Assembly: GCA_947632175.1 (NCBI GenBank) | Contig: CANROC010000004.1 | Coordinates: 62,001 to 126,000 of the forward strand | Reading direction: 5' to 3' | DNA length: 64,000 bases | DNA from: an uncultured Oscillospiraceae bacterium | GTDB taxonomy: Bacteria > Bacillota > Clostridia > Oscillospirales > Oscillospiraceae | Shown: positions 7,058-62,966 of the stretch, in pieces | How positions within the stretch are numbered: the first letter of the stretch is position 1 | Layout of the letters: each line of letters starts with the position of its first letter | The notes under the pieces: model-generated | The model's input: only the letters and a program-made list of their open reading frames with translations | Told to the model about the DNA's origin: nothing | The model's database searches: none | Position numbers and translations under genes: made by a program

Positions 7058-7087
7058 AAAAAAGGACGCCGCAAGGCGTCCTTTTTT
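7058..7087. terminator. Bidirectional terminator hairpin, left flank of repeat copy 1
   Basis: AAAAAA-GGACGCC-gcaa-GGCGTCC-TTTTTT. It can terminate the DUF975 gene on the plus strand. An almost identical hairpin is repeated at 7299-7328 on the other side of the repeat element. Confidence 0.88.
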
Positions 7088-7298
7088 CAGCCTGTCGAAA
7101 AAGGCCTGCGGCCTTTTTCGACAAAGGGGAACGTGCGAAACTCCCGTCCTGAATTCTGCGGAATTCAGGACGGGAGTTTCTGCCGTTTTGCTCCGCGCAC
7201 GGCCCCGATGGGGCCGCACACTCCGCAAAACAAAAGGAATTTTTTCCGACGTACATGCCGCCGGAAAAAATGCTCGATTTGAGTTTTTTGACAACCTG
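7088..7298 (+). repeat. Structured ~210-bp intergenic repeat, copy 1 (candidate ncRNA or non-autonomous mobile element)
   Basis: No convincing ORF. Four hairpins are visible. P1: 14-bp perfect stem 7093-7106/7110-7123 (TGTCGAAAAAGGCC, loop TGC). P2: 19-bp perfect stem 7138-7156/7161-7179, loop TGCG. P3: GTTTTGC/GCAAAAC (7185-7191/7225-7231) enclosing CGGCCCC/GGGGCCG. P4: TTTTTTCCG/CGGAAAAAA (7240-7248/7262-7270). Constant single-stranded blocks are AAAGGGGAACGTGCG after P1 and TGCTCGATTTGAG near the end. The ends form imperfect inverted repeats (CAGCCTGTC...GACAACCTG). Three further copies are in this window. It lies between convergent genes. Confidence 0.85.
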
Positions 7299-7328
7299 AA
7301 AAAAGGACGCCGCACGGCGTCCTTTTTT
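7299..7328. terminator. Bidirectional terminator hairpin, right flank of repeat copy 1
   Basis: AAAAAA-GGACGCC-gcac-GGCGTCC-TTTTTT, differing from the left-flank hairpin by one loop base. On the minus strand it would terminate the yabP-yabQ-divIC-S1 operon, whose last stop codon is at 7343. Confidence 0.88.
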
Positions 7329-20639: not shown

Positions 20640-20667
20640 CAGACGCCCCCGTTTCTCAGCTAAGCGT

Positions 20668-20696
20668 ATTATACCACAAAACGAACGATTTGTCAA
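20668..20696 (-). promoter_or_regulatory. Consensus promoter pointing antisense into citrate synthase
   Basis: Minus strand: -35 TTGACA (20691-20696), 17-bp spacer, extended TGTGG next to -10 TATAAT (20668-20673). No minus-strand gene start lies downstream; transcription would enter the 3' end of gltA from the opposite strand. Confidence 0.75.
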
Positions 20697-20778
20697 GTAT
20701 TTTTTAGTAAAATAGAAATAAATTTACGCAAATCCCTCTCCCGCCCCTCCCAATACCCTCCCCCTGTTCACCACATGC

Positions 20779-20808
20779 AAAAAAGCCCCTCCATCCGGAG
20801 GGGCTTTT
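20779..20808. terminator. Bidirectional terminator hairpin, left flank of repeat copy 2
   Basis: AAAAAA-GCCCCTCC-atcc-GGAGGGGC-TTTT; terminates gltA on the plus strand. The same stem recurs at 21016-21043. Confidence 0.87.
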
Positions 20809-21015
20809 GAGCCTGTCGGAAAAGGCCTGCGGCCTTTTCCGACAAAGGGGAACGTGCGGAAGATTCCGCGTGAATTTTGCGAAATTCACGCAAAATCTTC
20901 CTGCCGTCGCCCTGCGCGCACGGCCCTTTGGGCCGCACACTTGGGCGACAAAAGGTATTTTTTCCGACGTACATGCCGCCGGAAAAATGCTCGATTTGAG
21001 TTTTTTGACAGACTG
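20809..21015 (+). repeat. Structured intergenic repeat, copy 2
   Basis: Same architecture as the copy at 7.1 kb with compensatory changes. P1 is TGTCGGAAAAGGCC/GGCCTTTTCCGACA (20814-20827/20831-20844). P2 is a 20-nt arm pair 20858-20877/20882-20901 with one 2-nt internal loop and loop TGCG. P3 is GTCGCCC/GGGCGAC (20906-20912/20943-20949) enclosing CGGCCC/GGGCCG. P4 is TTTTTTCCG/CGGAAAAA (20958-20966/20980-20987). Shared blocks AAAGGGGAACGTGCG and TGCTCGATTTGAG are unchanged. It lies between convergent gltA and the M16 peptidase gene. Confidence 0.85.
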
Positions 21016-58584: not shown

Positions 58585-58783
58585 CCTGTCGAAAAAGGCC
58601 GTTGGCCTTTTCCGACAAAGGGGAACGTGCGGGGAATTCCGCGTGAATTTTGCGAAATTCCCGCGAAATTCCCCTGCCGTCACGGTTCGCGCACTCGCAA
58701 CGCTTCCCACTCACCGTGACAAAAGGAATTTTTTCCGACGCACATGTCGCCGGAAAAAATGCTCGATTTGAGGTTTTGACAAG
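58585..58783 (+). repeat. Structured intergenic repeat, copy 3
   Basis: Between glgP and glgC. P1 58587-58600/58604-58617 (13 of 14 pairs, loop GTT instead of TGC). P2 58631-58650/58655-58674 (18 of 20 pairs, loop TGCG). P3 GTCACGGT/ACCGTGAC (58679-58686/58713-58720), a sequence wholly different from copies 1 and 2 but still fully paired. The inner GC hairpin inside P3 is lost. P4 is as in the other copies with one loop change. Constant blocks are retained. Only the right side has a nearby terminator. Confidence 0.82.
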
Positions 58784-58799
58784 TTTATTTAAGGGCATC

Positions 58800-62667: not shown

Positions 62668-62700
62668 AAACCGCGCTATCAGGGGGGCGGAGGCCCCCAC

Positions 62701-62903
62701 AGCTTGTAAAAAAACTCCAATCGAGCATTTTTTCCGGCGGCATGTACGTCGGGAAAAATACCTTTTGTCGCCCAAGTGTGCCGCTTGCGGCGCGCGCAGG
62801 GCGACGGCAGGGAAATTTCGCATGAATTCCGCAGAATTCACGCGAAATTTCCCGCACGTTCCCCTTTGGCGGAAAAGGCCGCAGGCCTTTTTCGCCAAGT
62901 CAG
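62701..62903 (-). repeat. Structured intergenic repeat, copy 4 (reverse orientation)
   Basis: Reads on the minus strand, opposite to the flanking glgA and GH13 genes. In element direction P1 is TGGCGAAAAAGGCC/GGCCTTTTCCGCCA (plus-strand 62867-62880/62884-62897); both arms changed together from TGTCG/CGACA to TGGCG/CGCCA. P2 arms at 62810-62829/62834-62853 pair at 19 of 20. P3 is GTCGCCC/GGGCGAC (62767-62773/62799-62805) around a GCCGC/GCGGC stem. Constant blocks are intact. It is flanked by GC hairpins at 62683-62698 and about 62905-62925. Confidence 0.82.
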
Positions 62904-62966
62904 AGGGCGGGGACCCCGCCCCCTGACCCATTTTACCGATTCATTCATCAAAGGAAACCCGATTTT

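What the first reader, a model, noticed from the sequence alone, without database searches (positions are those of the whole stretch)
7088..7298. Four-copy structured repeat with covarying helices: candidate new RNA class or RNA-like mobile element
The copies at 7088-7298, 20809-21015, 58585-58783 and 62701-62903 (reverse) share a fixed four-hairpin plan, but helix sequences differ while pairing is kept. P3 is GTTTTGC/GCAAAAC, GTCGCCC/GGGCGAC, GTCACGGT/ACCGTGAC and GTCGCCC/GGGCGAC. P2 is a 19-20 bp stem with different sequence in each copy and a 4-nt loop of similar type. P1 changes TGTCG/CGACA to TGGCG/CGCCA. Between the stems, blocks AAAGGGGAACGTGCG and TGCTCGATT are constant. Paired change with fixed loops is the classic sign of selection on structure. 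The first arm of P1 can also pair with the 3' TTTTTTGACA end, so two exclusive folds are possible.
Basis: seen in the sequence. Interest (0 to 1): 0.82.

Follow-up and report, generated by a model that had tools for sequence, protein, structure and literature searches.

The report
Terminator-hopping mini-transposon full of hairpins
The four look-alike hairpin clusters are copies of a tiny gene-less transposon that tends to jump into the hairpins marking the ends of genes and duplicate them, and it carries an older, widespread hairpin module whose own job is not known.

Summary
The four copies share one plan (P1, P2, P3/P3b, P4) and their helices covary. I examined 58 copies in the window's genome; 19 of 24 other same-genus genomes match. 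Rfam has no family for it.

A new RNA class is not supported for these copies. Their ends (about CAGSYTGTCRAAAA...TTTTTGACA..CTG) match those of complete IS1182-family insertion sequences in four relatives. Most two-ended copies, and all four insertion sequences, sit between two copies of one hairpin, mostly about 20-35 bp and terminator-like. Relatives lacking the insertion have one hairpin (copy 2) or no insert (copy 3). So they are IS1182-type MITEs that mostly duplicate a whole target hairpin; IS1272 of that family is reported to delete it.

The covariation lacks an RNA signature: G·U and A·C mismatches are equally rare (29 vs 27 of 2446 cells; SRP RNA 312 vs 12 of 2103). That suggests palindromes kept perfect as DNA. 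A small model-fitted set from divergent relatives leans to RNA (24 vs 2 of 645).

The inner module also occurs without full transposon ends, often directly behind stop codons in sense orientation (22 of 34 copies), and in 19 of 148 sampled genera. Its function is open.

The parts
7088..7298 (+). Copy 1: complete element, CAGCCTGTCGAAAA ... TTTTTTGACAACCTG
   Evidence: IS1182 ends
7058..7087 (.). Left copy of the target hairpin AAAAAAGGACGCC-GCAA-GGCGTCCTTTTTT
7299..7328 (.). Right copy of the same hairpin (loop GCAC), direct orientation
   Evidence: score 28 direct vs 24 inverted
7093..7123 (+). P1 hairpin of copy 1; its 5' arm overlaps the left terminal inverted repeat
20809..21015 (+). Copy 2: complete element
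20781..20808 (.). Left target hairpin AAAAGCCCCTCCATCCGGAGGGGCTTTT
   Evidence: single hairpin in relative L265
21016..21043 (.). Right target hairpin, loop inverted relative to the left one
   Evidence: score 28 inverted vs 20 direct
58585..58783 (+). Copy 3, directly after the stop codon of the glycogen phosphorylase gene; against the insertion-free sites the insert is about 58586-58791; no duplicated hairpin
   Evidence: (L386, L387)
62700..62902 (-). Copy 4, right end degenerate (TTTTTTTACAAGCTG)
62903..62927 (.). GC-rich hairpin at the left end of copy 4 (5' side on the minus strand)
62683..62698 (.). GC-rich hairpin at the right end of copy 4; only weakly similar to the left one
   Evidence: score 12, below the 99th percentile of cross pairings

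Best explanation
The four sequences are non-autonomous mobile elements (MITEs) moved by an IS1182-family DDE transposase supplied from elsewhere. Shown by sequence: the element ends match those of complete IS1182-family insertion sequences in the same genus; both kinds of element mostly sit between two copies of one hairpin, usually terminator-like; a relative without copy 2 has one hairpin, and two relatives without copy 3 have no insert. Inferred: the transposase recognises an extruded hairpin or cruciform rather than a base sequence, joins the element's 3' ends to the 5' feet of the hairpin on the two strands, and repair synthesis copies the whole hairpin onto both sides. This is the 'pathway b' that Wan et al. 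2017 (PMC5678879) drew as one possibility when modelling IS1272. In at least six of 41 copies the second hairpin fits better inverted, which I read as later cruciform flipping (inference). The inner module (P2, P3, P4) is a palindrome-rich sequence that also occurs without full transposon ends and is probably older (inference). Its arms are probably kept perfect at the DNA level, by template-switch correction or by selection for DNA hairpins, because the changes in the own and same-genus copies show no preference for G·U pairs (inference).
For: TIRs: five IS1182 transposase loci over the NCBIfam cut-off came from 5 of 24 genomes. Four of the five (L070-L073) have, at both ends, CAG, two variable bases and TGTCAAAAAA, each at most one mismatch from the element's end consensus; the fifth (L069) shows one such end only, with two mismatches. 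The four are flanked by identical hairpins of 31, 31, 23 and 21 bp and score 339-384 bits against IS1182 (cut-off 270). Target duplication: same-copy flanks match above the 99th percentile of cross pairings in 17 of 25 own copies and 12 of 16 relatives' copies; 0 of 2000 permuted pairings reach the observed mean in either set. Insertion-free sites: L265 has one GCCCCTCC..GGAGGGGC hairpin at the place of copy 2; L386 and L387 read CTGACAGGGCATC and CTGACACGGCATC where copy 3 is inserted. Same target reused: at the gene beside copy 2, L275 has an IS1182-like end directly after its terminator hairpin, and L281 has a related element (R1 93 bits) between two near-identical hairpins. No RNA wobble signature in own and genus copies.
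Against: No IS1182 copy with these ends was found in the window's own draft genome: its two family hits (L076, L085) are partial and lie near GGGGCTGTGAAAAAAG ends. 8 of 25 own and 4 of 16 relatives' copies do not pass the duplication threshold, among them window copies 3 and 4. Copy 3 went in without duplicating any hairpin. One duplication (L047) is mostly not a hairpin. The copy 2 site is verified through the gene on one side only. Copy 1 has no clean insertion-free site: L358 has one matching terminator but also a remnant terminal hairpin. Copy 4 was not tested. On the DNA-level reading: cells are not independent (copies share ancestry), and the 15 divergent rows of A4 lean to RNA, GU 24 vs AC 2 of 645 cells and 11 vs 1 in variable columns, though that alignment is fitted to the structure and its P4 has 0 and 0 of 180. 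A finder that treats both mismatches alike gave GU 4 vs AC 9 of 752 pairs for 17 sequences of other genera.
Confidence: 0.85

Rival explanations
1. The inner module is a functional structured RNA (a 3'-UTR cis element on the plus strand, or a small RNA transcribed from the minus strand and stopped at P1), and the IS1182 ends only captured it as cargo.
For: Covariation and fixed linkers and loops. Of own copies failing my two-end rule 22 of 34 start within -3 to +5 bp of the stop codon of a co-directional gene, against 1 of 24 that pass it. By eye, 12 of 27 printed tuf 3' flanks carry a member in sense orientation, as do 12 of 18 relatives' spacers between glycogen phosphorylase and glgC. 10 of 34 have a perfect TTGACA-17-TATAAT promoter reading into the minus strand, 0 of 34 a promoter of 10/12 or better into the plus strand from the left. 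The A·C mismatch of P4 would be G·U on the minus strand. The divergent rows of A4 have GU 24 vs AC 2 of 645.
Against: Own and genus copies lack G·U enrichment: 29 GU vs 27 AC of 2446 cells against 312 vs 12 of 2103 for SRP RNA; variable columns 21 vs 21 against 89 vs 4. Orthologous spacers: glycogen phosphorylase-glgC GU 6 vs AC 8 of 562 pairs, tuf 0 vs 2 of 284. The ten promoters are near-copies of one repeat. Presence is sporadic: 14 of 27 tuf flanks show no member within 250 bp. No transcription data.
Confidence: 0.25
2. Ordinary tandem terminators with a structured spacer, not a mobile element.
For: Copies lie at gene ends beside terminator-like hairpins.
Against: Sharp shared ends like IS1182 ends, two unlinked copies 95 and 98% identical to copy 1, insertion-free sites.
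Confidence: 0.03
3. A REP/BIME-like or hairpin element mobilised by a Y1 (RAYT/IS200-like) transposase or an integron-like integrase acting on folded single-stranded DNA.
For: High copy, palindromic, mosaic composition, and a stop-codon position recalling integron attC sites (the comparison is from memory).
Against: Two-ended inverted repeats and hairpin-length duplication fit DDE transposition. No RAYT or integrase search was made here.
Confidence: 0.05

Closest known systems
IS1272 / TnSha1 (IS1182 family; PMC4923244, passages seen; PMC5678879, abstract, two Results sections and first part of the Discussion read)
   Same: IS1182-family transposase; targets are hairpins, several of them transcription terminators, without sequence specificity.
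   Different: IS1272 is reported to delete or replace the target stem-loop and make no target duplication; here the stem-loop is mostly duplicated. Wan et al. drew whole-stem-loop duplication only as an alternative pathway.
Bacterial MITEs such as Correia/NEMIS, ERIC, BOX/RUP/SPRITE (review PMC10969869, passages seen)
   Same: Short, gene-less, high copy, terminal inverted repeats, intergenic, fold strongly when transcribed.
   Different: The term IS1182 does not occur in the review's main text. This element has duplicated hairpins as target sites and a covarying inner module shared with other genera.
REP/BIME palindromes (PMC2817692, search listing only)
   Same: Palindromic, mosaic, high copy, between genes.
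   Different: REPs go with Y1 (REP-associated tyrosine) transposases; here the ends and flanks are those of a DDE element.
Candidate structured RNAs from human microbiomes (PMC8040213, passages seen)
   Same: That set includes palindromic candidates read as terminators or REPs.
   Different: Whether this motif is among its 3161 candidates could not be checked, since supplements were not open to me.

Membership tests
MITE of the IS1182 family | Terminal inverted repeats matching an IS1182-family insertion sequence | tested here: met
   4 of 5 over-cut-off IS1182 loci have both ends within one mismatch of the element end consensus
MITE of the IS1182 family | Short and without a transposase gene | tested here: met
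   About 205 bp in the window, too short for a transposase of about 430 aa; the copies printed show the hairpin module inside (longer ones up to 434 bp)
MITE of the IS1182 family | Multiple dispersed copies and insertion-free sites | tested here: met
MITE of the IS1182 family | Target-site duplication | tested here: met
   17 of 25 own copies and 12 of 16 relatives' copies above the 99th percentile; not at window copies 3 and 4
MITE of the IS1182 family | Autonomous partner in the same genome | tested here: not met
   Own draft genome: two partial IS1182 hits near different ends; partners present in relatives. A lost partner or one missed by the draft is possible; this is not a required feature
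MITE of the IS1182 family | Mobilised in trans by the transposase | not testable with these tools
   Needs a transposition assay
IS1272-type stem-loop replacement | Target hairpin lost and no duplication | tested here: not met
   Hairpin duplicated at most two-ended copies and at 4 of 4 complete two-ended IS1182 elements. Copy 3 shows no duplication but also no lost hairpin
Known Rfam RNA family | Match at or above gathering score | tested here: not met
   0 matches in the window; in 20 loci of divergent members the only match above gathering score is an L10 leader outside the element
Structured functional RNA | Covarying helices | tested here: met
   58 of 60 pairs with changes on both sides; 37 of 61 on the unfitted alignment
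Structured functional RNA | G·U wobble tolerated more than A·C on the RNA strand | tested here: inconclusive
   Not met in own and genus copies: 29 vs 27 of 2446 cells, SRP control 312 vs 12 of 2103. Divergent rows of the fitted alignment: 24 vs 2 of 645
Structured functional RNA | Transcribed | not testable with these tools
   No RNA-seq

The most novel reading that the evidence does not exclude
The inner module is an uncatalogued structured element spread over many genera of this order. It often sits directly behind stop codons in sense orientation, in some copies with a consensus promoter reading its minus strand, and acts on mRNA 3' ends (as RNA or as DNA hairpins). One lineage of it was captured between IS1182 ends and became a MITE that duplicates terminators, so the transposon now seeds gene ends with new copies.
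Probability: 0.3. Interest if true: 0.85.

Novelty: new variant of a known kind. Interest (0 to 1): 0.6.

Why it matters
It gives sequence evidence for whole-stem-loop target duplication by IS1182-family transposition, which the papers I read had drawn only as a model. It offers many natural insertions for dissecting how a DDE transposase reads DNA hairpins. It is also a cautionary case: strong covariation by itself does not prove an RNA, and the balance of G·U against A·C mismatches helps to separate the two readings. Related elements occur behind core genes such as tuf, so they may reshape gene ends in these bacteria.

Tried and rejected
Rfam at gathering score and at relaxed E-value: nothing that fits the element. 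Phage and plasmid collections: no match. Tandem-terminator reading: rejected by insertion-free sites. Pseudoknot between GTGCG and CGCAC: considered while reading the alignment and not pursued, because the columns hardly vary. A hairpin finder that treats G·U and A·C alike was not used as the main wobble test: it found only 17 hairpins in 24 SRP sequences (GU 3, AC 2 of 186 pairs), and its A·C excess in the 41 copies (37 vs 8 of 1782) may come largely from the constant A·C in P4, which I did not separate. Reverse-strand RNAalifold gave a lower energy (-155 vs -134), but I did not treat it as proof of strand. The R2 class-wide search scored eight candidates per genome and gave 5 of 391 genomes, and R1 over the order scored nine per genome: floors, not distributions.

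Rows dropped: of 106 R1 rows I examined 58 copies; the rest are opposite-strand echoes, fragments or weaker rows. Of 28 SRP loci 24 were aligned (four loci too short). Some truncated or expanded copies were left out of A1 and A4. The split into 24 two-ended and 34 other copies is a regular-expression rule, under which some of the 34 still have one recognisable or degenerate end; L030 (window copy 4) was added by hand to the 24. Distances to stop codons come from my own codon-based gene caller and were counted by eye, as were the tuf and glgC flanks. Insertion-free sites were sought for copies 1, 2 and 3; copy 1 gave no clean result and copy 4 was not tried.

Literature: eight searches showed no paper naming this element; ISfinder was not available.

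Full report
WHAT IS THERE. The four copies are present at the stated places. A complete copy runs from CAG (7088) to CTG (7298). The order is P1 hairpin, AAAGGGGAACGTGCG, P2 (loop TGCG), P3 enclosing P3b, AAAAGG, P4 with the 7-base loop TACATGC, then TGCTCGATTTGAGTTTTTTGACA..CTG. In the own genome the DNA query gives 57 matches and covariance model R1 gives 106 rows; I examined 58 copies. In the 40-genome set (own genome included) 21 genomes match: the own one, 19 of 24 others of the genus (16 of these 24 with eight or more matches) and one of another family. Model R1 matches 29 of 295 genomes of the order, in 19 of 148 genera, own genus included (nine candidates scored per genome). Model R2, built from 14 divergent sequences (one from the genus, none from this genome), finds all four window copies.

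STRUCTURE. On 86 copies 97.6% of cells pair (shuffled 76.3%), 58 of 60 pairs change on both sides, and 949 cells do so (shuffled 214); sliding the partners by one to three columns drops pairing to 42-59%. That alignment was fitted to the model. The unfitted 41-copy alignment gives 95.8% and 37 of 61 pairs.

RNA OR DNA. If a plus-strand RNA were under selection, G·U should be tolerated more than A·C. On the unfitted alignment G·U and A·C are 29 and 27 of 2446 cells. In SRP RNA of the same genus, aligned by MAFFT and folded by RNAalifold, with similar mean identity (0.79 vs 0.78), they are 312 and 12 of 2103 (the element's structure was the one I had given, and its RNAalifold structure gives 38 and 30 of 2689). 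In variable columns only: 21 and 21 for the element against 89 and 4 for SRP. In the fitted alignment the own-and-genus rows have 24 and 44 of 4156, and the 15 divergent rows 24 and 2 of 645 (variable columns 11 and 1). The divergent rows thus lean to RNA, but they are few, fitted to the structure, and their P4 has 0 and 0 of 180. With a symmetric hairpin finder, 17 other-genera sequences give 4 and 9 of 752 pairs, the glycogen phosphorylase-glgC spacers 6 and 8 of 562, the tuf flanks 0 and 2 of 284 (constant A·C of P4 not separated). I conclude that the paired changes of the near copies arise or are kept mainly at the DNA level. Template-switch correction of quasi-palindromes is a known process (recalled, not searched) and would give paired changes without wobble intermediates.

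MOBILITY. The guess that the ends are IS1182-like came from memory and was then tested. In the same genus four of five over-cut-off IS1182 transposase loci have both ends within one mismatch of the element's end consensus and are flanked by identical hairpins of 31, 31, 23 and 21 bp. The element's copies show the same: in 17 of 25 own and 12 of 16 relatives' copies the two flanks resemble each other above the 99th percentile of cross pairings, and 0 of 2000 permuted pairings reach the mean in either set. The repeated unit is mostly a whole terminator-like hairpin of about 20-35 bp; L047 is an exception with a 34-bp repeat that is mostly not a hairpin, and L032 has a short one. In L012, L018 (window copy 2), L035, L132, L062 and L067 the second hairpin fits better inverted. 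Insertion-free sites: for copy 2 the ortholog L265 (86% identical protein; other side not checked) has one hairpin; for copy 3 L386 and L387 (99% identical GlgC) have no insert between the glycogen phosphorylase stop codon and the leader of the next gene. Copy 3 therefore entered without hairpin duplication. Copy 1 gave no clean site and copy 4 was not tested. The own draft genome shows no IS1182 element with these ends.

PRIOR WORK. IS1272 and TnSha1 of this family are reported to target hairpins, several confirmed as terminators, with deletion of the stem-loop and no duplication (PMC4923244, passages; PMC5678879, abstract, two Results sections and first part of the Discussion). Wan et al. 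draw joining at the 5' feet with whole-stem-loop duplication as pathway b. Most copies here fit pathway b. I found no paper describing this element in eight searches.

STAND-ALONE FORM. 34 of the 58 own copies fail my rule for two transposon ends. 22 of these 34 begin within -3 to +5 bp of the stop codon of a co-directional gene, against 1 of 24 two-ended copies (Fisher p 1.8e-6, not corrected for shared ancestry). Upstream genes include tuf, acpP, htpG and rny, named by me from their translations. By eye, of 27 printed tuf 3' flanks 12 carry a member in sense orientation (one interrupted, some partial or behind a terminator), one carries a related element on the other strand, and 14 show none within 250 bp. 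Between glycogen phosphorylase and glgC, 12 of 18 relatives carry a member and 6 do not (by eye; glycogen phosphorylase, glgC named by me). 10 of 34 have a perfect sigma-70-type promoter on the minus strand to the right; these ten are near-copies of one sequence. 17 of 24 divergent members (22 of other genera, two of this genus) have a further conserved block, about (A)ACTCTGCGAGGC, after P4, usually behind a P5 hairpin. Some of these loci, such as L103 and L109, also have an IS1182-like right end and duplicated hairpins; L109 lacks the tail block.

VERDICT. IS1182-type MITEs, mostly with whole-hairpin target duplication, carrying a module whose own role is unknown. Shown: ends, duplicated flanks, insertion-free sites, copy number, lack of a wobble signature in near copies. 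Inferred: the transposase in trans, the cruciform target, the joining geometry, and DNA-level upkeep of the palindromes.

Noticed in passing
window 20660-20715 (minus strand): A stand-alone consensus promoter (TATAAT and TTGACA read on the minus strand) lies shortly after the citrate synthase stop codon and reads antisense into that gene's 3' end; near-copies of it adjoin 10 of 34 element copies.
   Followed up: partly
L025, L031, L141, L142 and L033, L034, L135, L136 right flanks: Copies without full transposon ends are followed by one of several other intergenic repeat families, as if composite repeats are assembled.
   Followed up: no
L299 (G015), tuf 3' flank: A sequence beginning GGGGCTGTGAAAAAAGTC, resembling the ends near a second IS1182 group in this genus, interrupts the P2 palindrome of the tuf-linked copy near its foot.
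   Followed up: no
L325 (G322), tuf 3' flank: A terminator-like hairpin takes the place of P1, directly followed by the constant block AAGGGGAACGTGCG.
   Followed up: no
L032, L035-L038, L132, L141: Some copies are longer (up to 434 bp) because P3b is replaced by a larger hairpin-rich insert that is itself repeated.
   Followed up: no
G000:C5:149780 and G017:C11:14059: An element copy lies within a few hundred bases of an SRP RNA gene in two genomes.
   Followed up: no
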